Notes under the pieces: generated by a model
The model's database searches: none
What the model was told of the DNA's origin: nothing
Seen by the model: only the letters and a program-made list of their open reading frames with translations
Made by a program: the position numbers and the translations under genes
Shown here: positions 23,013 through 64,000 of the stretch, one piece after another
Layout of the letters: each line of letters starts with the position of its first letter
Position numbering within the stretch: position 1 is the first letter of the stretch
Assembly (NCBI RefSeq): GCF_036173125.1
Contig: NZ_CP108054.1
Span: 434,001 to 498,000 of the forward strand
Source of the DNA: Streptomyces sp. NBC_00286
Lineage (GTDB): Bacteria > Actinomycetota > Actinomycetes > Streptomycetales > Streptomycetaceae
Length of the DNA stretch: 64,000 bases
Direction of reading: 5' to 3'

Positions 23013-23031
23013 GCACAGGAGAAGCTGACAC

Positions 23032-49811: not shown

Positions 49812-49939
49812 CTGGGCGCACTCCTGTGCCGCGAGTCGAAACGCGACCTCACTCCCGATCTGTGCGCAGGACTGGACCAATGCCGCGCGGTCCCCCATGA
49901 TGACGACGCCATGACAATGCATGCCTCAGGGTGGTGACC

Positions 49940-51877
49940 GTGCGCGGATCCTTCATCAGGGCCATGGCCACACTGGCCGCCGTATTCCTCATGGTGGCCC
50001 TGGCGCCCATCGCCGAGGCGGCAGTCGGGCGAGAGCCCGCCCCCGAGGCCGGTGCCCGACCCGAAATCGCCGCGATCGCGGCGGACTGGACGCCGCCGCT
50101 CAGCACGCGGGGTCGTTGGATCGTCGACGCGGACGGCGACCGCTTCAAGCTGCGGTCCGGCAACTGGCACGGAGCCAGCGGCACCTGGAACGGCTCGGGA
50201 AGCCCGGACGAGGACGCCGACCACCACGCGGGGGAGAACTCCGGCAGGATGCCGCTCGGCCTGGACCGTGCCCCCATGGCCGAGATCATCACCGGCTTCC
50301 AGGAGATCGGAATCAACAGCATCCGGCTGCCCTTCTCCAACGAGATGATCCACGACAGCCGTCCCGTCACGGACGATTCCGTGGCCGCCAATCCCTCCCT
50401 GCGCGGCAGGACCCCGCTCCAGGTGTACGACGCCGTGGTACGAGAACTCACCGCCGCCGGGCTCGCGGTGATCCTCAACAACCACACCAACACCACCCGC
50501 TGGTGCTGCGGAGTTGACGGCAACGAACGCTGGAACGCGAGCCAGTCCGCCCAGACCTGGGAGAACGACTGGCTCTTCATGGCCCGCCGCTACCGGGACA
50601 ACCAGCGCGTCGTCGGCGCCGACCTCTACAACGAGGTGCGCCGCAATGTCTGGGACGACCCCAACTGGGGGCTCGGTGACCACCACGACTGGTTCGCCGC
50701 CTCGCAGCGCGTCGGTGACCGCATCCTGACGGAGGCCGACCCCGACCTCCTGATCATCGTCGAGGGCATCAACTGGACCGGCATCCCCGTCGACGGACTC
50801 CCCCACGAACGCCCCACCCTGGAGCCCGTACGCCGCCTCTCGCACACGCTTGTCGACTCCGACAAGCTCGTGTACTCCGCCCACTTCTACGACTACACAG
50901 GCCCGAACCACAGCGGCGCCACCGGAACCGGCGAGACCAGCGACCCCCGCTACCGCGACCTGGCCCCCGCCGAACTGATCAAGGTGCTGAACCGCCAGGC
51001 CTTCTTCGTGACAGCGGAGACGGACCGGCACTTCACCGCGCCCGTCTGGATCAGCGAGTTCGGCATCGGAGGCCGTGACGAGACCGGCCAGAAGCAGCGC
51101 GCCTGGTTCGAGAACTTCGTCGACCATCTGATCCGCACCGACGCCGACTTCGCGTACTGGCCGCTCGTCGGCTGGCACGAGGACCGCAAGGGCAACGGCT
51201 GGGCCCTTCTGCACTGGGACACCGAGGGCCGCCGCATGGGCCTCTACGACGGCGACGACTGGCGGGCCGCCGCCTGGACCCGGCTCATCCAGGCCCAGGG
51301 CCGCACCGGCCCGGTGGAGCCCGTGGCGGACTGGTCGATGCTCAGCCCCGATCACCGCGACTTCGTCCAGTCGCGACGGATACGGGCCCTGCCCGACTGG
51401 GACTCCGGTGCCCGCAAGGCTGTGTGCCCCGACGGACAGCGGCTGCTCGGCCTCAGCCACACCGGCAACCGGGGCCTGTGCTCGGACGTGTCCACCGGCC
51501 CCCTGTGGGACCCGGCCGGCGGGCATGCGGTGGTCGTCGACGACCGGTACGTCAGGCCGGGCCACGACTGGGCGTCCGGATACACCAAACTCCAGTGCGC
51601 CGACGGCCACTTCCTGACCGGCTACAGCGTTCGCGGCTCCGCCGTCTCCGCCGCCCTGTGCGCGGCCGCTCCGGCCGGCGGGCTCGGCACGGGCGGCCGT
51701 ACGGTCTGGTTCGACCGGGGCGACAACAGGGGCTCGGCCGCCAAGGGCGGCGACTTCGCGCAGGGCCGCTACAAGGGCCAGTGCGCGGACGACGAGTACG
51801 CGGCCGGGATCGCGTACACGGGTCGGGTGGGCTCAGCACGGACTCCGGACGCGCTGTACTGCCGAAAACTGAGCTGA
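49940..51877 (+). CDS. Secreted GH5-type glycoside hydrolase with C-terminal three-repeat cysteine module
   Basis: A 645-residue secreted enzyme. Signal peptide to about residue 28. The catalytic domain (about 50-440) has the GH5 acid/base glutamate in DLYNEVRR (E232) and the nucleophile in WISEFGIGG (E373), so cellulase, mannanase or glucosidase activities are possible. The C-terminal 170 residues hold three repeats, each beginning Kxx-C-x-D (C496, C553, C615) and closing with a cysteine (C514, C574, C641). I do not recognise this module; a beta-trefoil-like carbohydrate-binding domain is plausible. GTG 49940 has AGGG at fair distance; GTG 49931 is the alternative. Confidence 0.87.
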   Translation: MRGSFIRAMATLAAVFLMVALAPIAEAAVGREPAPEAGARPEIAAIAADWTPPLSTRGRWIVDADGDRFKLRSGNWHGASGTWNGSGSPDEDADHHAGENSGRMPLGLDRAPMAEIITGFQEIGINSIRLPFSNEMIHDSRPVTDDSVAANPSLRGRTPLQVYDAVVRELTAAGLAVILNNHTNTTRWCCGVDGNERWNASQSAQTWENDWLFMARRYRDNQRVVGADLYNEVRRNVWDDPNWGLGDHHDWFAASQRVGDRILTEADPDLLIIVEGINWTGIPVDGLPHERPTLEPVRRLSHTLVDSDKLVYSAHFYDYTGPNHSGATGTGETSDPRYRDLAPAELIKVLNRQAFFVTAETDRHFTAPVWISEFGIGGRDETGQKQRAWFENFVDHLIRTDADFAYWPLVGWHEDRKGNGWALLHWDTEGRRMGLYDGDDWRAAAWTRLIQAQGRTGPVEPVADWSMLSPDHRDFVQSRRIRALPDWDSGARKAVCPDGQRLLGLSHTGNRGLCSDVSTGPLWDPAGGHAVVVDDRYVRPGHDWASGYTKLQCADGHFLTGYSVRGSAVSAALCAAAPAGGLGTGGRTVWFDRGDNRGSAAKGGDFAQGRYKGQCADDEYAAGIAYTGRVGSARTPDALYCRKLS

Positions 51878-51958: not shown

Positions 51959-52813
51959 TCATCTCGTCCCGTACCCGCCGCCCGACAGGGTCCGCAGCGC
52001 CGAGGTCACGGTATCGGCCATCGCCCGACGCGCCGCGGTGAGGGCCGGGCGGGGGTCGACGACCGTGGGCGCCGCGGCAAGTGTGTCGCGGACCGCGCCG
52101 GTGAAGGCAGCATTCAGTGCCGTACCGATGTTGACCTTGATCATGCCGGCCGCCACCGCTTGCCGGAGCTCCGCGTCTGGCACGCCCGTCGCGCCGTGCA
52201 GAACCAGCGGCACGGGGACCGCCTCGGCGAGGCGGGTGATGAGGCCGTGGTCCAGCCGGGAGGTGCGTGTGGTCATCGCGTGGGAGCTGCCGACCGCGAC
52301 GGCGAGTGCGTCGACCCCGGTGGCGGACACGAAGTCGCGCGCCTGATCGGGGTCCGTACGTGCCGACGGGGCGTGCACTCCGTCCTTGCCGCCGATCTCG
52401 CCGAGTTCCGCCTCCACCCACAGGCCCTGGGCGTGTGCCCACCGCGCCGCGGCGCACGTGGCGGCGACGTTCTCGGCGTGCGGCAGCGCGGACGCGTCGA
52501 ACATGACGGATCCGAAGCCGCAGTCCGGGGCGCGGCGCAGCAGCGCTTCGTCCGTGACGTGGTCGAGGTGCAGCGCCACGGGGACAGAGGCCTCCTCGGC
52601 GAGCGCGGCGGTGGCGCGGGCTATCGGGGCGAGCCGGTTGCCGTGGAACCGCACGGCGTTCTCGCTGATCTGGCAGATGACCGGGCAGCCCGCGGCTTCC
52701 GCCCCGGTGACCACGGCCTCGGCGTGCTCCAGGGTGATCACGTTGAACGCGCCGACGGCCCCTCTGCCGCGGAACGCGGAGCTCATCACGTCGGCGGTGG
52801 GAGTCAGCGGCAC
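51959..52813 (-). CDS. Class II ketose-bisphosphate aldolase (KbaY/GatY-like)
   Basis: A 284-residue class II aldolase of usual family length. Zinc ligands are in HLDHVTD (about 82-88) and LVLHGATGVPD (about 206-216), with GAFNVITLEHAEAV at the start and EAELGEIGGKDG near 134-145, closest to tagatose-1,6-bisphosphate aldolases. It would split tagatose or fructose bisphosphate into dihydroxyacetone phosphate and glyceraldehyde 3-phosphate. It is divergent from a DeoR-family regulator and near a SIS protein, the genes found in galactosamine utilisation. Start GTG 52813. Confidence 0.88.
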   Translation of the reverse strand: MPLTPTADVMSSAFRGRGAVGAFNVITLEHAEAVVTGAEAAGCPVICQISENAVRFHGNRLAPIARATAALAEEASVPVALHLDHVTDEALLRRAPDCGFGSVMFDASALPHAENVAATCAAARWAHAQGLWVEAELGEIGGKDGVHAPSARTDPDQARDFVSATGVDALAVAVGSSHAMTTRTSRLDHGLITRLAEAVPVPLVLHGATGVPDAELRQAVAAGMIKVNIGTALNAAFTGAVRDTLAAAPTVVDPRPALTAARRAMADTVTSALRTLSGGGYGTR

Positions 52814-52881
52814 CGACGGCCTCCTATCGCGGCGTGCGAGGGCCGCGACAGCGGCAAGGGCTTACGGGAGGTGCAGGGTTT

Positions 52882-52918
52882 TGCTCGTTTGGCGACCATA
52901 AAACACCCAATCAAGCGT
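52882..52918. promoter_or_regulatory. Candidate DeoR-family operators, aldolase/regulator divergon
   Basis: TGCTCGTTTG (52882-52891) and, on the other strand, CGCTTGATTG (52918-52909) match a decamer TGCTYGWTTR that recurs in tandem in the importer/SIS promoter region at 57 kb. AATCA...TGATT (52909-52925) is an extra dyad. The sites lie between the divergent aldolase and regulator genes. Confidence 0.55.
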
Positions 52919-52977
52919 TGTGATTCCATGGAGGTGCGCACATCGTGGCGCACACCATCGACAGGGAGTTGTGAGAC

Positions 52978-53766
52978 ATGGCGGGACCGCAGGCCCGGTG
53001 GAGCGCGCTGCTGGAGATGCTGACGCGCGACGGGCGGATCGAAGTCGAGGCGGCTGCCGAGGAGTTGGGGGTCTCCGCCGCGACGATCAGGCGAGACCTC
53101 GACGAGCTGGCCCGCCAGCAGATGGTCACCCGCACGCACGGCGGCGCCTCGCTCAACGCCATCGCCTACGACCTGCCGCTGCGCTACAAGGCCGCGCGCA
53201 ACGCTCCGGAGAAGGAGCGGATCGCGCACGCGGCCGCCGAGCTGGTGAAGGCCGGCGCCGTGGTGGGGTTGAACGGCGGCACCACGACCACCGAGGTGGC
53301 GCGGGCACTGGCCACCCGCGCCGACCTGAGTTCCGGCGGCGCGGAGACGGCGGTCACCGTGGTGACCAACGCCCTGAACATCGCCAACGAGCTGGTCGTG
53401 CGGCGCCACGTCAAGCTCGTAGTGACCGGCGGAGTGGCCCGGCCGGCGTCCTATGAGTTGATCGGGCCGCTGGCCACCGAACTGCTCGCGGAAATCGCGC
53501 TGGACCAGGTCTTCATCGGGGTGGATGCCATCGATGTGGCCCACGGGGCGACGGCCCACCACGAGGGCGAGGCCAGCATCAACCGGGCGCTGGCCCGCCG
53601 CGCGCAGCAGGTCATCGCGGTCGCCGACTCCTCCAAGCTGGGCCAGCGGGCCTTCGCCCGCATCTGCCCGGTGGAGGAGATCGACGTCCTGGTGACCGAC
53701 AAGGCCGCCTCGGACGAGCTGACCAAGTCGTTCGTGGCGGCCGGTGTGGAGGTCGTCCGCGCCTGA
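52978..53766 (+). CDS. DeoR-family transcriptional regulator (AgaR-like)
   Basis: A 262-residue DeoR regulator. The winged helix covers residues about 8-58 (RIEVEAAAEELGVSAATIRRDLDEL, then VTRTHGGA). The effector domain carries GLNGGTTTTEVARAL, the family's phosphosugar-binding loop, and FIGVDAIDVAHGATAHHEGEASINRAL. In E. coli AgaR this fold senses amino-sugar phosphates. Its position beside the aldolase, importer, SIS protein and glycosidases makes it the likely local repressor. GGGAG precedes the ATG. It converges with the permease gene, 50 bases apart. Confidence 0.9.
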   Translation: MAGPQARWSALLEMLTRDGRIEVEAAAEELGVSAATIRRDLDELARQQMVTRTHGGASLNAIAYDLPLRYKAARNAPEKERIAHAAAELVKAGAVVGLNGGTTTTEVARALATRADLSSGGAETAVTVVTNALNIANELVVRRHVKLVVTGGVARPASYELIGPLATELLAEIALDQVFIGVDAIDVAHGATAHHEGEASINRALARRAQQVIAVADSSKLGQRAFARICPVEEIDVLVTDKAASDELTKSFVAAGVEVVRA

Positions 53767-53816
53767 CACCGCACGCCGCTCCCGTGCCGGCTCCGGCCGC
53801 GACGCGCATCCCGTCG

Positions 53817-54704
53817 TCATCCGCGGACGCCGCCCGCGGTCAGGCCGGAGACGAGGTGGCGCTCCACGAAGACGAACAGCACCACCACGGGCACGATCGA
53901 GACGAGCGAAGTGGCGAACAGGTACTGCCACTGCTCGTGGTACGAGGTGACGAAGCCGGGAATCGCCTTGGTCAGGGTCATCCGGTTGCTGGACGAGGTG
54001 ATGGTGAGCGCCACCACGTACTCGTTCCACGCGGCGATGAAGGTGTAGACGAGCGCGGTCACCACACCGGGCATCGCGAGCGGCAGTACGACACGGGTGA
54101 GGGCGCCGAACCGCCCGGTGCCGTCGAGCCAGGCCGCCTCCTCCAGTTCCCGGGGGATGCTGGCGAAGTACGCGTTGAGGATCCACACGCAGAACGGCAG
54201 GTTGAACGCGGCGTTCACCAGGATGAGGCCCTCGGCGGTGTCGGTCAGGTCGAGGCTGACCATCTCCCGGTAGATGCCGACCAGCAGTGCGGTCGGCGCG
54301 AACATCTGGGTGACGAGTACGAGCAGCAGGAAGGCGCCGCGCCCGCGGAAGCGGTGCCGGGCTGTGTAGTACGCGGCGGGCATCCCGACGGCCAGGGCGA
54401 GCAGCGTCGCCGCCCCGGCGACGTACAGCGAGAAGACCAGCGCGTCCGCGACGCGCGGGTCGGTGAGCGACCAGATGTGCGTGAAGTTCGACCACTCCCA
54501 TCGGGAGGGCAGATAGGACGGCGGGGACTTCATCAGTTCGGGCGTCGGTTTGAGCGCCGTCAGCAGCATTTCCGCGTAGGGCGCGAGAAACGCCAGTGCC
54601 ACCAGCCATCCGACGGCGGTGAGCAGGACGGTGCGCAGTTTCATCGGTCTTGGCCGCCTCCTGCGCGGCGCTGCTTTGCGGGGGATGCCGGCGGTCCTGC
54701 TCAC
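53817..54704 (-). CDS. Carbohydrate ABC transporter permease (MalG-like)
   Basis: A 295-residue sugar permease with six hydrophobic segments and the EAA loop ELEEAAWLDGTGRFGALTRV (about 186-205). The start GTG 54704 overlaps the preceding permease stop by four bases (GTGA) and has GAGG seven bases upstream. An internal ATG at 54644 is possible but its ribosome site is too distant. Third gene of the leftward importer operon; no ATPase gene is linked. Confidence 0.91.
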   Translation of the reverse strand: MSRTAGIPRKAAPRRRRPRPMKLRTVLLTAVGWLVALAFLAPYAEMLLTALKPTPELMKSPPSYLPSRWEWSNFTHIWSLTDPRVADALVFSLYVAGAATLLALAVGMPAAYYTARHRFRGRGAFLLLVLVTQMFAPTALLVGIYREMVSLDLTDTAEGLILVNAAFNLPFCVWILNAYFASIPRELEEAAWLDGTGRFGALTRVVLPLAMPGVVTALVYTFIAAWNEYVVALTITSSSNRMTLTKAIPGFVTSYHEQWQYLFATSLVSIVPVVVLFVFVERHLVSGLTAGGVRG

Positions 54705-55666
54705 GTGGTGTCCTCTTGTCGGCGGACGACGCGCAGATAGACCAGCACCACAGCCAGGATCAGCCCGAAATTGACGACGGCCATGGCGGCCGACTCCCCC
54801 ACCGACTGGTTGTCGAAGGCGAGTTTGTACAGGTAGGTGGTGGTCGTGTCGGTGGCGAACCCGGGGCCGCCGCGCGTCATGGCCCAGATGATGGGGAACG
54901 AGTTGAACACGTTGATGATGTTGATGATCGCGGCGACCACCAGTGAGGGCCGCAGCAGCGGCAGGGTGATGCCCAGGTAACCGCGGACCGGGCCGGCGCC
55001 GTCCACCCGCGCCGCCTCGTACACCTCGGCGGGGATGCTCTGCAGACCGGCCAGCAGGACGAACGAGGTGAACGGCAGCGAGACGAACACCGCCACGCCC
55101 ATCATCGCGGCGAGGGCCAGTCCCGGATTGGCCAGCCAGTTGACGGGCGCGTCCAGCACACCGAGGTCCATGAGCAGCCGGTTGACCACGCCGTAGAAGT
55201 TGTTGAGCATCCAGCGCCAGATGAGCGCCGTCATCAGCACGGACGAGGCCCAGGGCACGATCAGCGCCCACCGCACCAGCCTGCGCCCGGGGAAGCGGGA
55301 GTTCAGCAGCCCGGCCAGGCCGAGAGAGAGCATGAGCGTGACGGTGACGACTCCGACGACCCACACGAGGGTGCGCAGCAGTACTCCGGGCAGGTCGCCC
55401 TCGGCGAACAGGTCGGTGTAGTTGCGGACGCCGGCGAACCCCTGGGACTGTCCGGTGGAGCTCACCCGTGTCAGGGACGTACGGATCATCTCGATGACCG
55501 GCCAGACGACCATGGTCAGGATGAGGAGGGCCGCGGGACCGAGCCACAACACGGGCTCCAGCGCGCGCCAAGTCCTGCGACGGCGGCGCGGCGAGGGTGG
55601 CGTCGGCGCCACCGGGGCCGGGTGTTCGGCCCCGGTGGCGCTCACAGTGACATCGTGTACGGCCAC
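54701..55666 (-). CDS. Carbohydrate ABC transporter permease (MalF-like)
   Basis: A 321-residue permease. A 35-residue P/R-rich leader precedes the first helix (VLWLGPAALLILTMVVWPVI). Six helices follow, with the EAA loop VYEAARVDGAGPVRGYLGI (about 218-236). GTG 55666 lies five bases after the binding-protein stop. It pairs with the permease at 53817-54704. Confidence 0.91.
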   Translation of the reverse strand: MAVHDVTVSATGAEHPAPVAPTPPSPRRRRRTWRALEPVLWLGPAALLILTMVVWPVIEMIRTSLTRVSSTGQSQGFAGVRNYTDLFAEGDLPGVLLRTLVWVVGVVTVTLMLSLGLAGLLNSRFPGRRLVRWALIVPWASSVLMTALIWRWMLNNFYGVVNRLLMDLGVLDAPVNWLANPGLALAAMMGVAVFVSLPFTSFVLLAGLQSIPAEVYEAARVDGAGPVRGYLGITLPLLRPSLVVAAIINIINVFNSFPIIWAMTRGGPGFATDTTTTYLYKLAFDNQSVGESAAMAVVNFGLILAVVLVYLRVVRRQEDTT

Positions 55667-55671
55667 CGAGG

Positions 55672-56931
55672 TCAGTCGCCCTTCTGCGCGGGCTTCTGGA
55701 TCTCGCCCAGGACCTTCGCCGGGTCGCCGCCCGCCACCGCCGTGCCGATGCGCTGTTTCACGGCGCCGTCGACCGCGGCCCATGCGGGGTCGTCGGTGGG
55801 GGCGAACTCCGCGTCGGAGAGGGCGTCGACGAACGGCTTGTAGTAGGCGGCGTCCCGGCTGTCGGAACTGAGCACCTCACCGGCCGACTTGGTGACCGAC
55901 AGGAACCCCTCGGTGGAGACGAACTCGGCGGCGTTCTCCTTCTGGTAGAAGAAGTCGAGGAACTTCTTCACCCCTGCCTTGTTCGACCCGTCACCCTTCT
56001 TGAACGCGACGAGGTAGTCCTGCACACCGAGCGTCTTGTGCGTACTGCCGTCCTTGCTCGGCAGGGGCGCGACGCCGTAGTTCAGCTTCTTGTCGACCGG
56101 GTCGATGAAGCCCTTCCGCATGAAGACCGCCCCGTTCAGCATGCCGATCCTGCCCTGGGCGAACTGGTTGAAGACATCCTTGCGGTTGGTGGTCTCCGGG
56201 TTGGGCTGGGTGACCTTGTCCTTCGTCAGTTTCCGCAGATAGGTGAGCGTGTCGACGTTGGCCTGCTGGTCGATCGCCCACTTGCCCGAGGCGTCGGTCC
56301 AGCCGCCGCCGTTGTTCATCGCCCAGATCTGGAACTCGGCCTGGGCCTCCTCGGCCCCCAGGGGCAGCCCGAGGCCGATGTAACCGGCCTGCTTGATCTT
56401 CTTGGCGGCGGCCTCGACCTCGGCCCAGGTGGACGGCGGCCGGGCGATGCCCGCCTTGGCGAAGATGTCCTTGTTGTAGAAGAACAGGCGCGCACTGGAG
56501 ATGAAGGGCAGACCGTACTGGGTTCCCTCGTACTGCGCCTTCTGCCGGAACAACGGGAGGAAGTCGGCCAGCACCTTGGGAGAGACGACGTCCTGCGCCT
56601 TGTGGACCAGGCCGTCGCGGGCGAAGTCGGAGAACTTGTTGTAGTTGAGGATGTCGGGTTCCTGCTTGGTCTGGACGTACGTCTTGACCTTGGAGTCCAT
56701 CTGCTCCCAGTCGACGACTTCGAGATTCACCCGGTAACCGGGGTTCGCGGATTCGAAGTCCTTGATCAGCGCCGTCCAGTAGGCCTGGGTGTCGTCGTCG
56801 TACTTCGCCGCGACGAACCTGATCGTCCTGCCGTCGGATCCGCCGCTGTCCGACGAGCTGCCCTTGCCGCATCCGGTGAGGGCCAGTGCCAGGGACAGTC
56901 CCCCGGCGAGGCATGCGAGGTGCCGTTTCAC
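55672..56931 (-). CDS. Extracellular sugar-binding lipoprotein
   Basis: A 419-residue family 1 solute-binding lipoprotein. VKRHLACLAGGLSLALALTGCG gives a lipoprotein signal with lipobox LTGC. GTG 56931 has GAGAGG seven bases upstream and was preferred over ATG codons further out. The mature protein has the sugar-binder pattern (YQTYWTALIKDFE-like opening, then QEPDILNYNKFSDFARDG). First gene of the importer operon; a good promoter with operator-like repeats is just upstream. Probable ligands are oligosaccharides released by the adjacent secreted glycosidases. Confidence 0.92.
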   Translation of the reverse strand: MKRHLACLAGGLSLALALTGCGKGSSSDSGGSDGRTIRFVAAKYDDDTQAYWTALIKDFESANPGYRVNLEVVDWEQMDSKVKTYVQTKQEPDILNYNKFSDFARDGLVHKAQDVVSPKVLADFLPLFRQKAQYEGTQYGLPFISSARLFFYNKDIFAKAGIARPPSTWAEVEAAAKKIKQAGYIGLGLPLGAEEAQAEFQIWAMNNGGGWTDASGKWAIDQQANVDTLTYLRKLTKDKVTQPNPETTNRKDVFNQFAQGRIGMLNGAVFMRKGFIDPVDKKLNYGVAPLPSKDGSTHKTLGVQDYLVAFKKGDGSNKAGVKKFLDFFYQKENAAEFVSTEGFLSVTKSAGEVLSSDSRDAAYYKPFVDALSDAEFAPTDDPAWAAVDGAVKQRIGTAVAGGDPAKVLGEIQKPAQKGD

Positions 56932-56996
56932 GGAGTACCTCTCCGCACGCATGGCGTGCTTCGTCAAGCGCGTGCTCGCCTGATGGCGCGCTCGCT

Positions 56997-57055
56997 TGCT
57001 TGTTTATGCTCGATTACTGGTGTTATCAATCATCCAACGACATGATGCTCAATGA
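56997..57055. promoter_or_regulatory. Promoter with tandem operator decamers, importer/SIS divergon
   Basis: Leftward promoter: TTGATA (57029-57024), 17 bp, TAAACA (57006-57001). Two tandem decamers TGCTTGTTTA and TGCTCGATTA (56997-57016) cover its -10 and spacer. A third, TGCTCAATGA, is at 57046-57055. DeoR-family repressors bind such direct repeats. Related decamers flank the regulator's own promoter. Confidence 0.6.
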
Positions 57056-57126
57056 AACGCGCACGGCGTCAAGGGCCGTCACATCACGTATCGGTCACAC
57101 CGCGCGCCCGAGAGGGGAGACTCCCG

Positions 57127-58020
57127 ATGAGCCAGACCGAGATCGAGATCGCCACCCAGCCCGACTGCTGGCGGCACGCCGTGGCACTGGCCCGGCGGCC
57201 CGACGGCCTCGCCTCGCTGCCCCGAACCGGCGAGCGGGTGGCCGTCGTCGGCTGCGGGACGTCCTGGTTCATCGCCCAGGCGTACGCGGCGCTGCGGGAG
57301 TCGGGTGGCCACGGCGAGACCGACGCCTTTCCCGCCTCCGAGATGCCGGCCGGGCGTGCCTACGACCGGGTGGTCGCGCTGACCCGGTCCGGAACCACGA
57401 CCGAGGTGCTGGAACTCCTCCGCCGACTGCACGGGCGCACCCCCACGACCGCGGTGACCGCGGTACCGCAGGCGCCGGTGACGGGGCTGGCGGACGCCGT
57501 CGTCGTGCTCGACTTCGCCGACGAGGTCTCGGTCGTCCAGACTCGGTTCGCCAGCACGGAACTGGTGCTCCTGCGGGCGCATTTGGGCGAGGACCTGGGA
57601 CATCTGCCGCAGCAGGGGCACTCCGCGCTGGACGAACCGCTGCCGGCCGGGGTGCTCGAGGCCGAGCAGTTCACCTTCCTGGGGCAGGGCTGGGCCTACG
57701 GGATCGCCCAGGAGGCGGCACTGAAGATGCGCGAGGCGGCGGGCGCCTGGACGGAGGCCTATCCGGTGATGGAGTACCGGCACGGCCCGATCAGCGTTAC
57801 CGGACCCGGCCGCGTGGCGTGGTGGTTCGGAGACCCGGCGGCCCTTCCGTCCGGTCTCGCCGACGACATCGCCCGCACCGGCGGGCAGTTGGTGGCACTC
57901 GGCCGGGACCCCCTGTCCGACCTCGTCGTGGTGCACCGGCTGGCCGCCGCCCTCGCCTCGGCACGCGGGCTGGACCCGGACAATCCGCGCCATCTGGCCC
58001 GTTCCGTGATCCTGACCTGA
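57127..58020 (+). CDS. SIS-domain sugar isomerase/deaminase-like protein (AgaS/GlmS-like)
   Basis: A 297-residue protein of two SIS phosphosugar-binding lobes. VAVVGCGTSWFIAQAYA (about 40-56), VVALTRSGTTTEVLELL (about 82-98), FLGQGWAYGIAQEAALKMREA (about 180-200) and YPVMEYRHGP (about 213-222) are the catalytic landmarks of GlmS-type isomerase and AgaS deaminase domains. It may convert galactosamine 6-phosphate to tagatose 6-phosphate; that role rests on its neighbours. It is divergent from the importer. GAGGGGAG precedes the ATG. Confidence 0.85.
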   Translation: MSQTEIEIATQPDCWRHAVALARRPDGLASLPRTGERVAVVGCGTSWFIAQAYAALRESGGHGETDAFPASEMPAGRAYDRVVALTRSGTTTEVLELLRRLHGRTPTTAVTAVPQAPVTGLADAVVVLDFADEVSVVQTRFASTELVLLRAHLGEDLGHLPQQGHSALDEPLPAGVLEAEQFTFLGQGWAYGIAQEAALKMREAAGAWTEAYPVMEYRHGPISVTGPGRVAWWFGDPAALPSGLADDIARTGGQLVALGRDPLSDLVVVHRLAAALASARGLDPDNPRHLARSVILT

Positions 58021-58239
58021 CCAGGCACCCCCGGACGGATCTCGGGGAAGTCGCAGAATTTACCCGTCCGTTACGAACGGATTCCGGGCCCGTCGAGGCC
58101 TCTCAGCGGACCCCGGGACCGACTGCCACCAGGGACAACAACTGTTCCACGAGGACCCTCGGGACCCTTGGGAAGCCGCATGCCCCACAGGTTGACAGGT
58201 GGCGGCGACCGCAAGAACATGAGCGAAATCCCTTGGAAT

Positions 58240-58253
58240 CTTGCATCTGCAAG
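58240..58253. promoter_or_regulatory. CTTGCA-type palindrome in the 376-base gap before the GH31 gene
   Basis: CTTGCATCTGCAAG is a 6-bp inverted repeat with a 2-bp centre, about 145 bases before the GH31 start. It resembles CTTGCAG-type repeats bound by LacI-family MalR at Streptomyces maltose and amylase promoters. TTGACA at 58192-58197 could be a -35. Otherwise the gap 58021-58396 shows no ORF I can support. Confidence 0.45.
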
Positions 58254-58396
58254 CAGCATCAGACAGACATCAAGCCTCCCAAGCGCCGCGCTTCCTCGTG
58301 ACCGCGCACTCCGCCCGCCGCACTCCGCACGCCACCGGCACCACGCACCGCAGCTTCTGAGTCACCGTCACCGTCCTGTCCGACAGGAGGACACGA

Positions 58397-61300
58397 GTGC
58401 ACGCCCGACTGAGCAATCCCGGCGGCCTGTTGCTCGCTGCCGCCCTGACCGCCGCCATGCTGATGGCGCCCGTCACCGGCTCTACCGCGGCAACGGCCGC
58501 CGCCCGCCCCGCCACCGCCACCACGGCCACAACCGACGGACCTAAGGTGTCCCGCACCGCGAACGCCGTCACGGTCTCCGTACCGGCCTCCGCCGGAGCC
58601 CCCGGCTACACCCTCGACGTGGCCACCGACGAACTCGCCCTGACCACGCGCCGCGCCGGGAAGACCGTGCTCGCCACCGCCACCGGCGACACCGGCGCCC
58701 TGCGCTTCACCGCGGCCGACGGCACGTGGCAGCACGCGACCGGCGTCACCGACTGGACGTGGAAGAACGGCGTCCTGACCGTCACCGCCGACAGCACCCT
58801 CGACGGCACCACGGTGGAGGCCCGGATCACCCCCCGCGCCGACCGCTACCAGCTCGACTGGGACGTCCACGGCGGCGGAGCGGAGCAACTGGGCCTCGCC
58901 TACGACCTGTCATCGGCCGGCCACTGGTACGGCCACGGCGAGGCGGAGACCCCGCAGGGCGGTCCCGGCGTCAACCAGCCCTGGCCGCTCGACGCCGGCG
59001 AGGTCGACCACGAGACCTTCGGCCCGGCGTCGTACAACATGATCGACCCGTTCTGGTACACCTCCAAGTCGACCGGTCTGCGCGTCGACACCGGGGACGT
59101 CATGGACGTGGCGCTCAACAAGGGCAAGGACGGTCTCGGCACTTTCACCGTCGAGTCGCCCGACACCTACAAAGCCACCGTGTTCGTCGAGTCGACCCCG
59201 CTGGAGGTCTACCGCGATTACATCGGCATCGTCGGCAAGCCGACCAAGAGTGACGCCACGTACGAGCAGTACGCCAAGCCGCTGTGGAATTCCTGGGCGC
59301 AGTTCTACACCAAGATCGACCAGGAGAAACTGCTCGACTACGCCACCGACCTCTACGACAACGGTCTGGACGGGCACACCATCCAGCTCGACGACAAGTG
59401 GGAGTCGAACTACGGCAATCTGACCTGGGATCCCAAAACCTTCCCCGATCCCAAGGGCCTCTCCAAGAAGATCCACGACATGGGGTTCGACTTCGGCATC
59501 TGGGTCACCCTGTGGATCAACCTGGACTCCGACAATTACCAGTACGCGGTCGACAACGGCTACCTGCTCATGGACGCCAAGGACACGAACAAGCCGTGTG
59601 AAGTGACCTGGTGGAACGGCCAGGCCGGGATCATCGACCTGGCGAACCCCGAAGCCAAGGCCTGGTACGAGGGCAACCTCAAGAAGCTGATGGACACGTA
59701 CGACATCGACGGGCTGAAGTTCGACACCCGCTTCTTCGATGAGAAGTGCGCGCCGCGCGAGGGCCACCAGGCCACGGACTACCAGAAGCTCGGCACAGAA
59801 CTCGCCGACGAGTTCGACCTCCAGGGCGCGGGCATCCGGGTGCACTGGAACAAGACGGCGCATGAGGCGGGCTTCGTCACCCGCCAGGTCGACAAGGGCA
59901 CCGGCTGGGACTCCCTGCGCGCCTCCGCCACCCAGAACCTGGCCATCTCCACCATCGGCTACCCGTTCGTCGAGTCCGACATGATCGGCGGCTCCGGCGG
60001 CCAGCCCGCACCGACAAAGGACGTACTGGTTCGGTGGGCGCAATCCGCCTCACTCATGCCGCTGATGTACGCCTCGACCTCCCCGGTCGACACCAACGAC
60101 ACCACCACCGGGCAGAAGGTCGACTACGACCAGGAGACGGTCGACCTCTACCGGGAGGCGATCGAGACGCACGAGAAGCTCGCCCCCTACATCTGGGATC
60201 AGGTGCAGAGCACACTGAAGACCGGCGATCCGATCATGCGGCCGCTGTTCTTCGACTTCCCTAAGGACGAGGCGAGTTACACGGTCACCGACGAGTGGAT
60301 GCTCGGACCGGCCGTGCTGGCCGCGCCCAAGCTGAGCACCGGCGCCACCCGCTCCGTTCATCTGCCGCCGGGCACCTGGTACGACGTCAACCAGGGCACC
60401 GTGATCCGCGGCCCCAAGACCCTCAAGGGGTATGCGGCGCCGCTCGGCGTCACCCCGGCCTTCGTCAACCTCAAGGCCAAGGGTGCCGCCAAGGCCGTCA
60501 AGGCGCTCAAGCGCGACGACGCGCCGGCCGCCTCCGTCCTGATCACCCCGGACGCCCCGTCCACCGACGCCGGTAAGCCGTTCGAGGTGACCACCGAGGT
60601 GACCAACTGGGGCACCCGGACCCTCAAAAACGCCAAGGCGGCCCTGGACCTGCCCGACGGCTGGACCGCCAAGGCGACCGGCCCGACCACCGCGAAGTCC
60701 CTCAAGAACGGCGCCACCCTCACCACCACTTGGACGGTGACCCCGGCCGACGACGCCCGATGGGCCGGCCACGACCTCACCGGCACCGCCACCTACACCG
60801 GTCGCGACGGCTCGCAGAAGGTGTCCGACACCGTGCCGGCGCAGGTGAAGGCAGCCCCGGGCAGCGTTCAGGAGCCGTACCTGACAGCCGACACGACTTC
60901 CGGGGGCGCCCAGTACGCCCAGGCCGGCGACCAGTTCGCCATCTGGGCGGGCGGCCAGGACCTGTCCGGCTGGAAGGACGAGAAGGGCGTCATCTACCGT
61001 GACGACGCGGCCGGGGAAAAGGCCACCGTGCAGGCGCAGTTGGTCTCCCAGAGCAGCGCCTCACCGGTCGGCAAGGCGGGCATCGCCCTCGCCAACGACC
61101 TGACGGCGCCCGAGAAGGGCGGTTACGCGGTGCTGGCCATGACCGAGAGCTACGGCCTGGAGTTCATGACCGACAGCGACGGTGACGGGAAGCTCGACAC
61201 CTGGGCGGGCGGTGGCTCCACCTACCACCCGGCGCATCTCAAGCTGACCCGGGACGGCGCCACCTACACCGCGTACGCCAGCAAGGACGGCGAGACCTGG

Positions 61301-61435
61301 TCGCAGGTCGGCACCGCCCAGGTGCCGTCGGCCACCGGCACAGGTGATGCCGGGATGGTCGCCAGCGCGGCCAACGTGAACTACCCCGGCGAGAACATCG
61401 AAGCCGTCTTCAGCGGATTCTCCGTCACCTCCTGA
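58397..61435 (+). CDS. Secreted GH31-family glycoside hydrolase with NEW3 and lectin-like domains
   Basis: A 1012-residue secreted enzyme. Signal peptide to about 31; an N-terminal beta domain; a GH31 barrel (about 270-640) with nucleophile aspartate in DGLKFDTRFF (D443) and acid/base aspartate in YPFVESDMIGG (D528); a distal beta region; an alpha-galactosidase-type NEW3 domain (about 710-800); and a C-terminal concanavalin-like sandwich (about 815-1010). GH31 enzymes cleave alpha-linked glucose, xylose, galactose, sulfoquinovose or N-acetylgalactosamine. The neighbours favour the last, but substrate cannot be fixed by reading. The start is GTG 58397, with AGGAGG upstream. Confidence 0.88.
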   Translation: MHARLSNPGGLLLAAALTAAMLMAPVTGSTAATAAARPATATTATTDGPKVSRTANAVTVSVPASAGAPGYTLDVATDELALTTRRAGKTVLATATGDTGALRFTAADGTWQHATGVTDWTWKNGVLTVTADSTLDGTTVEARITPRADRYQLDWDVHGGGAEQLGLAYDLSSAGHWYGHGEAETPQGGPGVNQPWPLDAGEVDHETFGPASYNMIDPFWYTSKSTGLRVDTGDVMDVALNKGKDGLGTFTVESPDTYKATVFVESTPLEVYRDYIGIVGKPTKSDATYEQYAKPLWNSWAQFYTKIDQEKLLDYATDLYDNGLDGHTIQLDDKWESNYGNLTWDPKTFPDPKGLSKKIHDMGFDFGIWVTLWINLDSDNYQYAVDNGYLLMDAKDTNKPCEVTWWNGQAGIIDLANPEAKAWYEGNLKKLMDTYDIDGLKFDTRFFDEKCAPREGHQATDYQKLGTELADEFDLQGAGIRVHWNKTAHEAGFVTRQVDKGTGWDSLRASATQNLAISTIGYPFVESDMIGGSGGQPAPTKDVLVRWAQSASLMPLMYASTSPVDTNDTTTGQKVDYDQETVDLYREAIETHEKLAPYIWDQVQSTLKTGDPIMRPLFFDFPKDEASYTVTDEWMLGPAVLAAPKLSTGATRSVHLPPGTWYDVNQGTVIRGPKTLKGYAAPLGVTPAFVNLKAKGAAKAVKALKRDDAPAASVLITPDAPSTDAGKPFEVTTEVTNWGTRTLKNAKAALDLPDGWTAKATGPTTAKSLKNGATLTTTWTVTPADDARWAGHDLTGTATYTGRDGSQKVSDTVPAQVKAAPGSVQEPYLTADTTSGGAQYAQAGDQFAIWAGGQDLSGWKDEKGVIYRDDAAGEKATVQAQLVSQSSASPVGKAGIALANDLTAPEKGGYAVLAMTESYGLEFMTDSDGDGKLDTWAGGGSTYHPAHLKLTRDGATYTAYASKDGETWSQVGTAQVPSATGTGDAGMVASAANVNYPGENIEAVFSGFSVTS

Positions 61436-61466
61436 CGAGCCGTTGCCACTGGCACCACCCCCGTTT

Positions 61467-61502
61467 CCCGGCAGGCCTCCCACCCCCGTGGGGCCTGCCG
61501 GG
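61467..61502 (+). terminator. Hairpin between GH31 and DUF4091 genes
   Basis: CCCGGCAGGCC (61467-61477) pairs with GGCCTGCCGGG (61492-61502) over 14 bases, in the 112-base gap. It may partly uncouple expression of the two secreted enzymes. Confidence 0.6.
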
Positions 61503-61547
61503 GACGGGCCACTCCCTGCACGTCCGTGAGAGAGGGAACCCACCCCC

Positions 61548-63422
61548 ATGGCACGTACGTCCTCAGCTGTCGCCGGCTTTGTCGCGGGCGTAGTCGTGGC
61601 CGCGAGCACCACCGCGATCGCCGTCACCGGTACCACGGGTACGACCACCGGCACCGACCTCAACTCCAAGGCCACCACCACCTGGCTGACCGTCAAGGTC
61701 GCCGACGCCATGGGCACCAGGGACACCATCACCTGGGTTCCCACCGGCTCCTTCGCCGGCTCCGCGGAGGAGCGGGTCCCGCGTTACCCCATGACCGCCA
61801 TCCAGGGCAAGGACACCAAGGAGCTCAAGCTCTCCGCCGTGCGCAACGAGCAGGTCTCGGCGCAACTGGCGATCGCCTCCGGCCAGGATCTCGACGACGT
61901 CAAGGCCGTGGTCGGCGACCTCACCGGGCCCGGCGGCGCGAAGCTGTCCGGCGACGACACCCAGGTCCGGTTCGTCAAGTACGTGCCCGTGCAGCGCTCC
62001 AAGAGCGAGGTCGACTGGTCCGCCACCATCGACCAGGTCAGCTCCGGCAAGGAGGTGTCCGGCGACCGCAACCCCGATGTGGTCGGCGACGCGCTCGAGG
62101 AGCGGTCCTCTGTCGACGTACCCGCGTACGCGGCACAGCCGCTGTGGTTCACCTTCAAGATCCCCGAGAAGGCCCGGCCCGGCACCTACACCGGCACGGT
62201 GAAGGTCAACGCCGACGGCCGTACCCAGACCACCTACCCGCTGACCATCGAAGTCGCGGACGCGAGTGTGCCCGACCCGGAGGACTACGACTTCTTCCTC
62301 GACATATGGGCGCAGCCGGAGACGATGGCCAAGAACCACGGCGTCAGGCTCTGGTCCGACCGGCACTGGAAGCTGATCGAGAAGTACAACCGCGATCTGG
62401 CGTCACGCGGCCAGAAGGTCATCAACACCACCATCGTCGACAACCCCTGGCACCACCAGTGGTCACTCGGCACCCGGGAATCGCAGACCGCCACGCCGTA
62501 CACCAGCATGGTGGGCTGGAGCTGGAACGGAAAGACGTTCTCCTTCGACTTCGGCCGCTGGGACAAATACGTCCAGACCGCCAGACGCGCCGGTCTCGGG
62601 CCCGACATCGGTGCCTTCTCCATGCTGGCGTTCCAGGACCAGGAGCACCTCACCTACACCGACACCCGCACCGGCAAGACCGTCTACGAGAACGTCGACC
62701 TGGGCGGGGACCGCTGGCGGGAGGCGTGGGGAGCGTTCCTGCCCGCCTTCGAGAAGCATTTGAAGGCGAAGGGCTGGCTGGAGGACACCTGGCTGTCGTT
62801 CGACGAGCGGCCCATCGACACCATGACGGTCGTCAAGGACTTCGTCCACGAGGTCGCACCGGTCTTCGACGACCGTATCTCCGTCGCCGGTTCGATCAGC
62901 ACCGAGGGCGTCGCGTCCAACCTGTCCGTCGACTGGGGCGGCATCGACGCGATGACGAAGGAGAAGGTGGCGGAGCGGCGCAAGGCAGGCAAGACCACGA
63001 CCTTCTACGTGTACGGCTCGCCGGCCCACCCGAACACGCTGTCGTACTCGCCGGCCGTCGAGTCGCGGATGCTGCCGTGGATCTCCGCCCAGCGGAATCT
63101 GGACGGTTTCCTGCGCTGGTCGTACAACAGCTGGACCAGCGACCCCTTCAAGCAGCCGGTGCACGTCTTCACGCAGGGCGACGAGTACCTGGTCTACCCG
63201 GGCAGGGACGGCCCGATGTCCAGCATCCGCTGGGAGCAGCTGAAGGAGGGCATCGAGGACTACGAACTCATCGCCCAGCTGCGGAAGAAGGACGGCGGCG
63301 CCGACAGCGAGGCCCTGACCGAGGCCCTCACCACCGCGACCCGGAACCTCGACGGCCGGACGAAGGACGTCGGCGACATCGAGACCGCGCGGGCGGCCGT
63401 CGTGAAGGGGCTGACGTCATGA
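61548..63422 (+). CDS. Secreted DUF4091 / GH123-like glycoside hydrolase
   Basis: A 624-residue secreted protein. A signal segment (AGFVAGVVVAASTTAIAV) spans about 9-26. An N-terminal beta-sandwich (about 45-235) precedes a barrel domain of the DUF4091 family, which is related to GH123. The adjacent acidic pair in TWLSFDERPID (D419-E420) corresponds to the D-E pair that GH123 beta-N-acetylgalactosaminidases use in substrate-assisted catalysis. The family is sparsely characterised. It overlaps the GH35 gene by four bases (ATGA), so both enzymes are made together. Confidence 0.82.
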   Translation: MARTSSAVAGFVAGVVVAASTTAIAVTGTTGTTTGTDLNSKATTTWLTVKVADAMGTRDTITWVPTGSFAGSAEERVPRYPMTAIQGKDTKELKLSAVRNEQVSAQLAIASGQDLDDVKAVVGDLTGPGGAKLSGDDTQVRFVKYVPVQRSKSEVDWSATIDQVSSGKEVSGDRNPDVVGDALEERSSVDVPAYAAQPLWFTFKIPEKARPGTYTGTVKVNADGRTQTTYPLTIEVADASVPDPEDYDFFLDIWAQPETMAKNHGVRLWSDRHWKLIEKYNRDLASRGQKVINTTIVDNPWHHQWSLGTRESQTATPYTSMVGWSWNGKTFSFDFGRWDKYVQTARRAGLGPDIGAFSMLAFQDQEHLTYTDTRTGKTVYENVDLGGDRWREAWGAFLPAFEKHLKAKGWLEDTWLSFDERPIDTMTVVKDFVHEVAPVFDDRISVAGSISTEGVASNLSVDWGGIDAMTKEKVAERRKAGKTTTFYVYGSPAHPNTLSYSPAVESRMLPWISAQRNLDGFLRWSYNSWTSDPFKQPVHVFTQGDEYLVYPGRDGPMSSIRWEQLKEGIEDYELIAQLRKKDGGADSEALTEALTTATRNLDGRTKDVGDIETARAAVVKGLTS

Positions 63423-64000
63423 GGGGCAAGTGGAGATCTCTGCTGCTCGCCGGAGCTCTGTCTGTCATGCCCCTGACCAGCACAGGTGCCGCCGCGGAAC
63501 CGGTTCAGGCGGAGCCGCAGGCCCAGGCCCCGCGCACCGTCACGTACGACCAGTACTCCGTGAAGGTCGACGGCAAACCCCTGTACATCTGGGGCGCCGA
63601 GTTCCACTACTTCCGGCTGCCCAGCCCCGACGCGTGGCGGGACGTACTGCAGAAGATCAAGGCGGGCGGATTCAACGCCGTCTCGCTCTACTTCGACTGG
63701 GGCTTCCACTCCGCCAAGCCGGGCTCGTACGACTTCACCGGCACCCGTGACGTGGAGCGGCTGCTGAACGAGGCCGAGCGCGCGGGCCTGTATGTGATCG
63801 CCCGGCCGGGCCCGTACATCAACGCGGAGGTCTCCGGCGGCGGCATGCCCGCATGGCGCAAGACACAGGCCGGCGTGAACCGCACCTCCGAGCCGGAGTA
63901 CATGAAGGCGGCCCGGGAGTGGATGAGCCGGATCAACCCGATCATCGCGCGGCACCAACTCACCCGTGGCACCGGCAATGTGATCCTCTATCAGATCGAG
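63419..64000 (+). CDS. Secreted GH35 beta-galactosidase (partial, C-terminus beyond right edge)
   Basis: The reading frame from ATG 63419 runs open for 194 codons to the edge. A signal peptide (MRGKWRSLLLAGALSVMPLTSTGAAA) is followed by the GH35 start: LYIWGAEFHYFRLPSPDAWRD (about 57-77), GGFNAVSLYFDWGFH, IARPGPYINAEVSGGGMPAW and finally GNVILYQIE, where the window ends just at the expected acid/base NE pair. GH35 enzymes remove terminal beta-galactose. It is coupled (ATGA overlap) to the DUF4091 gene. Confidence 0.88.
   Translation, partial: MRGKWRSLLLAGALSVMPLTSTGAAAEPVQAEPQAQAPRTVTYDQYSVKVDGKPLYIWGAEFHYFRLPSPDAWRDVLQKIKAGGFNAVSLYFDWGFHSAKPGSYDFTGTRDVERLLNEAERAGLYVIARPGPYINAEVSGGGMPAWRKTQAGVNRTSEPEYMKAAREWMSRINPIIARHQLTRGTGNVILYQIE

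What the first reader, a model, noticed from the sequence alone, without database searches (positions are those of the whole stretch)
51959..64000. Candidate locus for capture and breakdown of a GalNAc/galactose-rich glycan
A KbaY-like aldolase, AgaR-like DeoR regulator, AgaS-like SIS protein, ABC importer, and secreted GH31, DUF4091/GH123-like and GH35 enzymes lie together. GH31 includes alpha-N-acetylgalactosaminidases, GH123 is known for beta-N-acetylgalactosaminidase, and GH35 removes beta-galactose. The cytoplasmic set matches the later steps of the E. coli aga pathway. I infer a Streptomyces system that trims GalNAc/galactose glycans outside the cell and feeds tagatose phosphate metabolism. 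No deacetylase or kinase gene is in the window; they may lie to the right.
Basis: partly seen in the sequence, partly recalled or inferred. Interest (0 to 1): 0.8.

Follow-up and report, generated by a model that had tools for sequence, protein, structure and literature searches.

The report
Streptomyces locus that harvests animal-type glycans
A soil bacterium carries a jointly controlled set of genes that looks built to strip galactose, fucose and amino-sugars from a complex, probably animal-type sugar chain outside the cell and to burn the released galactosamine inside, using some steps encoded elsewhere in its genome.

Summary
The GalNAc reading is partly supported. GH123 is a strong beta-N-acetylgalactosaminidase match, but GH31 has the alpha-galactosidase pocket of MYORG, nine of nine residues. 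SIS protein and aldolase fail the AgaS and KbaY models. The missing kinase and deacetylase were not among the right-flank genes scanned; a fused ROK-NagA gene plus PfkB lies 4 Mb away. SIS and PfkB are neighbours in at least 19 of 150 Streptomyces. A motif trained on nine other SIS/DeoR promoters has its three best sites in 80 kb at the three promoters of this locus, the third barely ahead of an unrelated fourth, so importer, SIS, aldolase and hydrolases look like one regulon. This GH123 was found in 5 of 150 Streptomyces. Side finding: two signal-less modules follow a Tat-type GH29 through conserved overlaps and may be Tat passengers. All activities and the natural glycan are inferred, not shown.

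The parts
51959..52813 (-). class II ketose-bisphosphate aldolase (predicted tagatose/fructose-1,6-bisphosphate)
   Evidence: Pfam F_bP_aldolase 279 bits; passes NCBIfam cbbA subfamily 221.9 vs 215.6 but not the KbaY or GatY models
52872..52889 (+). operator-like site between aldolase and deoR
   Evidence: 2nd best hit in 80 kb of a motif trained elsewhere, 15.5 bits
52978..53766 (+). DeoR-family regulator, AgaR-like
   Evidence: DeoRC/HTH_DeoR; best NCBIfam AgaR 207.8 bits, below its cut-off 260
53817..54644 (-). ABC sugar permease, second
   Evidence: BPD_transp_1
54701..55666 (-). ABC sugar permease, first
   Evidence: BPD_transp_1
55672..56952 (-). solute-binding protein of the importer
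   Evidence: SBP_bac_1 134 bits
56997..57014 (+). operator-like site in the divergent SBP/SIS promoter, TGCTTGTTTATGCTCGAT
   Evidence: best hit in 80 kb, 25.6 bits; only exact match to the searched pattern in the genome
57127..58020 (+). SIS-domain protein, predicted galactosamine-6-P deaminase/isomerase
   Evidence: SIS 39 bits; nearest solved chains GlmD/GlmS-type; homologues near PfkB in at least 19 of 150 genomes
58192..58197 (+). TTGACA, likely -35 box of the GH31 operon
   Evidence: GTTGACA (either strand) in 29 of 32 regions upstream of GH31, 0.7 expected
58248..58265 (-). operator-like site downstream of the GH31 promoter
   Evidence: 3rd best hit in 80 kb, 13.26 bits; an unrelated 4th scores 13.23
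58397..61435 (+). secreted GH31, MYORG-type alpha-galactosidase, with NEW3 and DUF1349-like C-terminal modules
61548..63422 (+). secreted GH123 beta-N-acetylgalactosaminidase
   Evidence: GH123_cat 302.6 bits; best solved chains 5l7v and 5l7r, E about 4e-70, Asp-Glu pair aligned
63419..64000 (+). secreted GH35 beta-galactosidase (runs past the window to 67066), followed off the window by GDSL 67081-68301, GH29 68347-69795, modules 69792-70745 and 70742-71656, and GH89 71732-74845

Best explanation
This is a DeoR-regulated scavenging locus for a complex glycan that carries alpha-Gal, beta-GalNAc, beta-Gal, alpha-Fuc and alpha-GlcNAc ends, most likely animal-type (mucin-like, helminth or arthropod glycoconjugates). 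Secreted exo-enzymes (GH31, GH123, GH35 with Sec-like leaders; GH29 and GH89 with Tat-like leaders) trim the chain outside. The binding protein and permeases import a released sugar, probably GalNAc or a GalNAc-containing disaccharide. Inside, a fused ROK-NagA protein encoded 4 Mb away phosphorylates and deacetylates it, the SIS protein converts galactosamine-6-P to tagatose-6-P with loss of ammonia, PfkB beside ROK-NagA makes tagatose-1,6-bisphosphate, and the aldolase splits it. The DeoR protein represses importer, SIS, aldolase and hydrolases through TGCTTGATTN-type direct repeats until an amino-sugar phosphate appears. Shown by sequence: gene set, families, GH31 active-site residues, shared motif, neighbourhood of SIS and PfkB. 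Inferred: every enzyme activity, the imported sugar, the inducer and the natural glycan.
For: Families. Residues aligned to solved enzymes: GH123 Asp-Glu, GH89 glutamates, GH29, GH31 nine of nine MYORG residues (residues from passages of PMC9491548). Regulon: a motif trained on 9 promoters outside this locus has its top three hits in 80 kb at the three promoters here; the best site exceeds the 95% null in 19 of 26 deoR, 19 of 19 SBP and 30 of 32 GH31 upstream regions. Pathway: SIS, ROK, NagA, PfkB and aldolase in one cluster in G093; SIS within 12 kb of PfkB in at least 19 of 150 genomes; own ROK-NagA fusion passes the NagA model (271 vs 225.65 bits) and lies beside PfkB. S. coelicolor NagA deacetylates GalNAc-6P in vitro (passages of PMC12680351). 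Recurrence: GH31-GH123-GH89 in two Wenjunlia loci and one Nonomuraea locus; GH42, GH29, GH123 and GH89 with permease and binding-protein-like genes in Rhodococcus rhodnii.
Against: SIS and aldolase are in only 9 and 8 of 25 Streptomyces GH123 loci within 10 kb (some contigs end early). None of the five best motif hits in the 20 kb around ROK-NagA-PfkB lies at its promoter, and NagA prefers GlcNAc-6P about tenfold. PfkB passes the general hexose-kinase model and narrowly misses 1-phosphofructokinase (283 vs 292 bits), while the tagatose-6-P kinase models fail clearly (about 185 vs 410 or more). No NCBIfam N-acetylhexosamine kinase model reaches its cut-off for the ROK part, which also carries an insertion near its N-terminus. 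SIS is nearer GlmD/GlmS than AgaS. 7 of 26 deoR regions lack a clear site; the hit at 23555 nearly equals the third site. I saw no sialidase, sulfatase or endo-O-glycanase in the locus and did not search the rest of the genome for them.
Confidence: 0.62

Rival explanations
1. One reading: GH31 is an alpha-N-acetylgalactosaminidase and the locus targets alpha-GalNAc glycans such as galactosaminogalactan.
For: GH31 subfamily 18 holds alpha-GalNAcases (passages of PMC13096917); GalNAc-type catabolism genes are present in the genome.
Against: Closest solved relatives are named alpha-galactosidase (8j53) and MYORG. Arg481 and Arg496 match MYORG R504 and R517; [quoted passage not shown]). None of the 60 PDB hits listed is named an alpha-GalNAcase, though 9 of the 69 matches were not shown and some chains carry only generic names.
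Confidence: 0.08
2. The hydrolases serve a plant or microbial polysaccharide and the SIS/aldolase pair handles another aminosugar or ketose phosphate, so GalNAc is not the point.
For: Nearest solved SIS chains are glucosamine-type; strong SIS homologues (E up to 1e-50) are in 137 of 150 Streptomyces while this GH123 is in 5; an aldolase lies beside SIS in 10 of 13 GH-less clusters examined, one of them in this genome; PfkB is nearest 1-phosphofructokinase; a xylanase and a GH5-like gene flank the locus.
Against: GH123, GH89 and GH29 together point to animal-type glycans; glucosamine-6-P would yield fructose-6-P and need neither PfkB nor aldolase of its own; the shared motif ties SIS/aldolase to the hydrolases.
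Confidence: 0.25
3. The neighbourhood is a loose accumulation of carbohydrate genes on the chromosome arm without common function.
For: The locus lies about 0.49 Mb from one end of the contig and varies in content: extra GH35, GH31 and GDSL copies in relatives.
Against: Block GH31-GH123-GH89 kept in several genera, conserved overlaps, one motif at three promoters.
Confidence: 0.05

Closest known systems
E. coli aga/gam and streptococcal aga systems for GalNAc (PMC3668189, PMC4694137: search listings and starts of abstracts only)
   Same: AgaR-like DeoR regulator, SIS protein, class II aldolase, deacetylase-then-phosphokinase logic
   Different: ABC importer and ROK kinase instead of PTS (PTS use in those systems partly recalled), SIS not of the AgaS family, kinase and deacetylase unlinked, own large secreted hydrolase operon
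Mucin-degrading enzyme sets of gut bacteria (passages of PMC10154618, and PMC13096917)
   Same: GH29 and GH35 (first paper), GH89 and a GH31 (second paper) among the enzymes
   Different: soil actinobacterium; MYORG-type GH31 instead of GH31_18; GH123 present; no sialidase or endo-O-glycanase seen in the locus
Human MYORG, GH31 alpha-galactosidase (passages of PMC9491548)
   Same: all nine -1 subsite residues mapped
   Different: secreted bacterial enzyme with NEW3 and DUF1349-like modules; +1 specificity unknown
GH123 enzymes of solved structure 5l7r/5l7v and 5fqe (organisms Bacteroides vulgatus and Clostridium perfringens recalled)
   Same: catalytic domain and Asp-Glu pair
   Different: part of an actinobacterial operon
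Tat passenger complexes such as E. coli PaoABC (PMC4273604, start of abstract only)
   Same: signal-less partners encoded beside a Tat-signal protein
   Different: here a glycosidase with two sugar-binding-like partners; export not shown

Membership tests
GH123 beta-N-acetylgalactosaminidase | GH123 catalytic domain above cut-off | tested here: met
   302.6 vs 23.1 bits
GH123 beta-N-acetylgalactosaminidase | conserved Asp-Glu catalytic pair | tested here: met
   SFDERP aligned to AMDERP and SMDERS (catalytic role recalled)
GH31 alpha-N-acetylgalactosaminidase (GH31_18) | hydrophobic pocket for the acetamido group where MYORG has its arginines | tested here: not met
   Arg481 and Arg496 stand at the positions of MYORG R504 and R517 (reasoning of PMC9491548). 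Not compared directly with a GH31_18 sequence
MYORG-type GH31 alpha-galactosidase | W321, D353, D354, W426, K461, D463, R504, R517, D520 | tested here: met
   all nine identical
AgaS | NCBIfam agaS_fam model | tested here: not met
   29 bits vs 529.2
KbaY/GatY tagatose-bisphosphate aldolase | NCBIfam models PRK12738 and PRK12737 | tested here: not met
   158 vs 542 and 209 vs 383 bits; only the broad cbbA subfamily is passed
AgaR | NCBIfam AgaR model | tested here: not met
   best hit, but 207.8 vs 260 bits
LacC tagatose-6-phosphate kinase (PfkB at 4.461 Mb) | NCBIfam lacC and PRK13508 models | tested here: not met
   185 vs 409.55 and 187.5 vs 469 bits; general hexose-kinase subfamily TIGR03168 passed, 323 vs 216
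NagA N-acetylglucosamine-6-phosphate deacetylase (second half of the fusion at 4.459 Mb) | NCBIfam TIGR00221 | tested here: met
   271.1 vs 225.65 bits
GalNAc catabolic pathway (aga type) | genes of the right superfamily for kinase, deacetylase, deaminase/isomerase, phosphokinase and aldolase | tested here: met
   SIS and aldolase here; ROK-NagA fusion and PfkB at 4.459-4.462 Mb
GalNAc catabolic pathway (aga type) | enzymes act on galacto-configured amino-sugar phosphates | not testable with these tools
   in the papers read, only S. coelicolor NagA on GalNAc-6P
GH89 alpha-N-acetylglucosaminidase | NAGLU domains and catalytic glutamates | tested here: met
   343 and 268 bits; HEGGN and PEA motifs aligned to 2vc9 (roles recalled)
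GH29 alpha-L-fucosidase | GH29 domain | tested here: met
   368 bits
Tat passenger (hitchhiker) proteins | no signal peptide, encoded with a Tat-signal partner | tested here: met
   hydrophobic N-terminal stretch in 1 of 18 and 0 of 16 modules; twin-Arg motif in 21 of 21 GH29 (simple pattern and hydropathy test, no signal-peptide predictor)
Tat passenger (hitchhiker) proteins | exported in complex with the partner | not testable with these tools
   needs secretome and pull-down

The most novel reading that the evidence does not exclude
The Tat-exported GH29 fucosidase is a three-subunit enzyme: two separately translated, signal-less sugar-binding-like proteins (69792-70745 and 70742-71656, beyond the window end) assemble with it in the cytoplasm and leave the cell as Tat passengers, whereas GH31, GH89 and a second GDSL esterase of relatives carry related modules covalently. 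This would be a glycosidase whose binding modules are recruited by coupled translation and joint export instead of gene fusion.
Probability: 0.33. Interest if true: 0.62.

Novelty: new variant of a known kind. Interest (0 to 1): 0.5.

Why it matters
It would show that some soil Streptomyces hold a dedicated, singly controlled route from complex GalNAc-containing glycans to central metabolism, with a MYORG-type alpha-galactosidase in a setting that may reveal what such enzymes cut in nature. The recurring GH31-GH123-GH89 trio offers enzymes for glycan analysis, and the operator motif gives a test of GalNAc regulation across the genus. The two orphan modules make Tat passenger export of a glycosidase complex directly testable.

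Tried and rejected
GH31 as alpha-GalNAcase: rejected on residues. Deacetylase and kinase to the right: none among the genes scanned to 77.8 kb in window coordinates; ORFs further right, to about 106 kb, were only listed, not scanned. The two small modules as a sequencing or frameshift break of GH29: rejected, because the same -1 frame arrangement is kept in 17 of 17 GH29/first-module junctions and in 15 of 15 second junctions printed. SIS as the GlcNAc-6-P dehydratase NagS: not favoured, since NagS is MurQ-related and did not bind GalNAc-6P while this protein matches GlmD/GlmS-type chains; the two sequences were not compared. Word counts on upstream regions are dominated by common descent, so I trained the motif on other loci (widths 14 and 18 tried, 18 used). 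Pattern search of the own genome with up to 3 mismatches gave 10 sites against 2 in the control; the 9 outside the locus were not followed. The own-genome search with a NagA query failed on wrong coordinates and was not repeated: the PF01979 match, the ORF and the family scans answered it. Fold search of the modules gave only domain-level lectin, CBM or AziU-like resemblance. Papers: in the listings of searches no title concerned this locus; others listed only part of their hits (15 of 21, 10 of 236, 12 of 19, 10 of 25), and most subscription papers are not held.

Because PfkB is nearest 1-phosphofructokinase, the confidence of the best explanation went from 0.66 to 0.62 and that of the second rival from 0.22 to 0.25; the third rival went from 0.04 to 0.05.


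Full report
Where it lies. The window is bases 434001-498000 of a 9.85 Mb single-contig genome. All coordinates are window coordinates; those above 64000 are read from the same contig.

What is there. On the left, a class II aldolase (-) diverges from a DeoR regulator (+); two permeases and a binding protein (-) diverge from a SIS protein (+), followed by GH31, GH123 and GH35 (+). The operon does not end at 64000: GH35 runs to 67066 and is followed by a GDSL esterase, a GH29 fucosidase, two modules of 317 and 304 residues without a Pfam match at E 0.001, and GH89 to 74845. Beyond it two genes on the other strand (a ricin-lectin-bearing protein and a GH10 xylanase) look like another neighbourhood.

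What the enzymes are likely to do. GH123: the best solved relatives are 5l7v and 5l7r (E about 4e-70), then 5fqe, named beta-N-acetylgalactosaminidase; the Asp-Glu pair is aligned. GH89 matches 2vc9 over 642 residues; GH29 matches the fucosidase chain 1hl8. GH31: the best matches are a chain named GH31 alpha-galactosidase (8j53) and human MYORG, ahead of alpha-glucosidases and alpha-xylosidases. I mapped nine MYORG residues named in PMC9491548 (passages) through the printed alignment: W321, D353, D354, W426, K461, D463, R504, R517 and D520 correspond to W300, D332, D333, W406, K441, D443, R481, R496 and D499, all identical. The paper says W321 gives galactose specificity, and that the N-acetyl group of GalNAc would need the space of the acid/base and two arginines (written R504 and R507 there, while the contacts listed before are R504 and R517). 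I therefore predict alpha-galactosidase and not alpha-GalNAcase activity. I had no GH31_18 sequence to compare.

The cytoplasmic set. The SIS protein passes no NCBIfam model listed; GlmD (84 bits, cut-off 580) is best and agaS_fam scores 29 against 529; the nearest solved chains are GlmD/GlmS-like. The aldolase passes only the broad cbbA subfamily; the KbaY and GatY models fail, and 1gvf, named tagatose-bisphosphate aldolase AgaY, ranks 7th of 27 solved sequences. AgaR is the best model for the regulator but its cut-off is not reached. The resemblance to the E. coli aga pathway is one of logic, not of family membership.

The missing steps. In G093 the SIS gene lies in one cluster with ROK, NagA, PfkB and aldolase genes; in G094 SIS, an ROK match, PfkB and aldolase lie in a similar row (its NagA was not checked). 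Putting the tables of SIS and PfkB (E up to 1e-80) side by side, at least 19 of 150 genomes have both within 12 kb (the SIS table was cut, so this is a lower bound, and in 5 of the 19 the neighbour is a second PfkB only 51-57% identical to the query). In the genome at hand ROK and NagA form one open frame of 762 residues at 4458926-4461214 with PfkB at 4461340-4462269. Neither SIS nor aldolase is beside them in the ORF list of that 20 kb (read by eye, with SIS hits of this genome elsewhere); SIS/aldolase pairs lie at 0.49 Mb (this locus) and 0.229 Mb. The NagA half passes its equivalog model (271 vs 225.65 bits). PfkB passes the hexose-kinase subfamily, narrowly misses 1-phosphofructokinase and clearly fails tagatose-6-P kinase; no N-acetylhexosamine kinase model reaches its cut-off for ROK. 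S. coelicolor NagA deacetylates GalNAc-6P in vitro, about ten times less efficiently than GlcNAc-6P (passages of PMC12680351).

One regulon. I trained an 18-base motif by EM on nine SIS/deoR promoters from clusters without the hydrolases, the nine of 13 such clusters in which saw deoR; it consists of two direct repeats of a TGCTTGATT-like sequence 10 bases apart. In 80 kb of this genome (window plus right flank) its three best sites are at 56997 (binding protein/SIS, 25.63), 52872 (aldolase/deoR, 15.51) and 58248 (downstream of the GH31 TTGACA box, 13.26); the fourth, unrelated, at 23555, scores 13.23. Across loci the best site beats the 95% level of Markov-shuffled sequence in 19 of 26 deoR, 19 of 19 binding-protein and 30 of 32 GH31 upstream regions; these regions share descent, so the counts are not independent. 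Of the five best hits in the 20 kb around ROK-NagA-PfkB none lies at its promoter, and the same holds for the second SIS/aldolase pair. The pattern TGCTTGWTTNTGCTCGAT matches exactly once in the genome, at this locus.

Distribution. GH123 of this type is found in 5 of 150 Streptomyces, this one included, at E up to 1e-20, while SIS homologues at E up to 1e-50 are in 137 of 150. A scan of genome contigs with the single protein (close relatives only) gave 42 loci: 25 Streptomyces, 2 Wenjunlia, 1 Rhodococcus rhodnii, 1 Nonomuraea, 2 Firmicutes, 10 Bacteroidota-type and 1 unassigned bacterium (phylum groupings mine). Within 10 kb flanks of the 25 Streptomyces loci, GH31 is beside GH123 in 24, deoR present in 20, the binding protein in 15, SIS in 9 and aldolase in 8. 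The two Wenjunlia loci and the Nonomuraea locus keep GH31-GH123-GH89, one Wenjunlia with DeoR and SIS in front. R. rhodnii has GH42, permease- and binding-protein-like genes, a LacI regulator, GH29, GH123 and GH89 together. That this species lives in blood-feeding bugs is recalled. The recurring set is why I favour an animal-type glycan; no tool result names the substrate.

The two modules. In 17 of 17 junctions a start codon (ATG or GTG) of the first module overlaps the GH29 stop in the -1 frame (NTGA), and in 15 of 15 the same holds between the two modules. The overlapping codon need not be the true start: in this genome a second in-frame ATG follows three codons later, and several database relatives are about three residues shorter than the query. 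By a simple pattern and hydropathy test, a twin-arginine motif is in 21 of 21 GH29 and 13 of 13 GH89 N-termini; a hydrophobic N-terminal stretch is in 1 of 18 first modules and 0 of 16 second modules, against 30 of 32 GH31, 34 of 34 GH123 and 28 of 29 GH35. The motif test is loose: it also fires in 14 of 29 GDSL, 3 of 32 GH31 and 1 of 34 GH123, partly on residues upstream of the start. AlphaFold models of close relatives (not of this genome's own copies) are confident: pLDDT 88.1 for the first and 93.7 for the second; I read them as Ig-like plus a concanavalin-type sandwich, and Ig-like plus another beta-sandwich. The best second-module match, AziU3/U2 of Streptomyces sahachiroi, has no sugar role that I know of. 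The first module is 46% identical over 310 residues to the C-terminus of GH31 and 35% over 189 residues to that of GH89, and relatives are fused to GH31 and GDSL proteins in the database. The economical explanation is translational coupling and joint Tat export with GH29; alternatives are an unknown export route, or that they stay inside.

Verdict. A real, conserved, apparently jointly regulated glycan-scavenging locus; the GalNAc idea is right for beta-GalNAc and probably for the inner pathway, wrong for GH31, and incomplete in extent. I rate it a new variant of a known kind.

Noticed in passing
window coordinates 69792-70745 and 70742-71656 (L012:8792-9745, L012:9742-10656): Two signal-less sugar-binding-like proteins behind a Tat-type GH29, joined by conserved stop/start overlaps; possible Tat passengers.
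   Followed up: partly
L084:9927-12215 (own genome 4458926-4461214): ROK kinase and NagA deacetylase in one 762-residue reading frame, while G093 (L055) has them as two genes that meet at the stop/start.
   Followed up: partly
L043/L044, L070/L071: Relatives carry extra genes: a second GH31 that aligns only to the catalytic part and a second GDSL esterase fused to a module like the first one (G141, G068), and a second GH35 (G068); this genome has no room for them between GH35, GDSL and GH29.
   Followed up: partly
L068/L069, joined position 22591-23199: In G096 the second GH31 seems reduced to a reading frame of about 200 residues.
   Followed up: no
L053 (own genome about 0.2276-0.2294 Mb): A second SIS/aldolase pair, about 61% identical to the first; none of the five best motif hits in that 20 kb lies at its promoter.
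   Followed up: partly
49931-51877: Secreted GH5-like protein with an unassigned C-terminal part just left of the locus; absent from the relatives' loci by the tblastn tables.
   Followed up: no
23555-23572: Fourth best operator-like hit in 80 kb, outside the locus.
   Followed up: no
L108: Rhodococcus rhodnii has GH42, GH29, GH123 and GH89 with importer-like genes, perhaps an independent assembly of the same enzyme set.
   Followed up: partly
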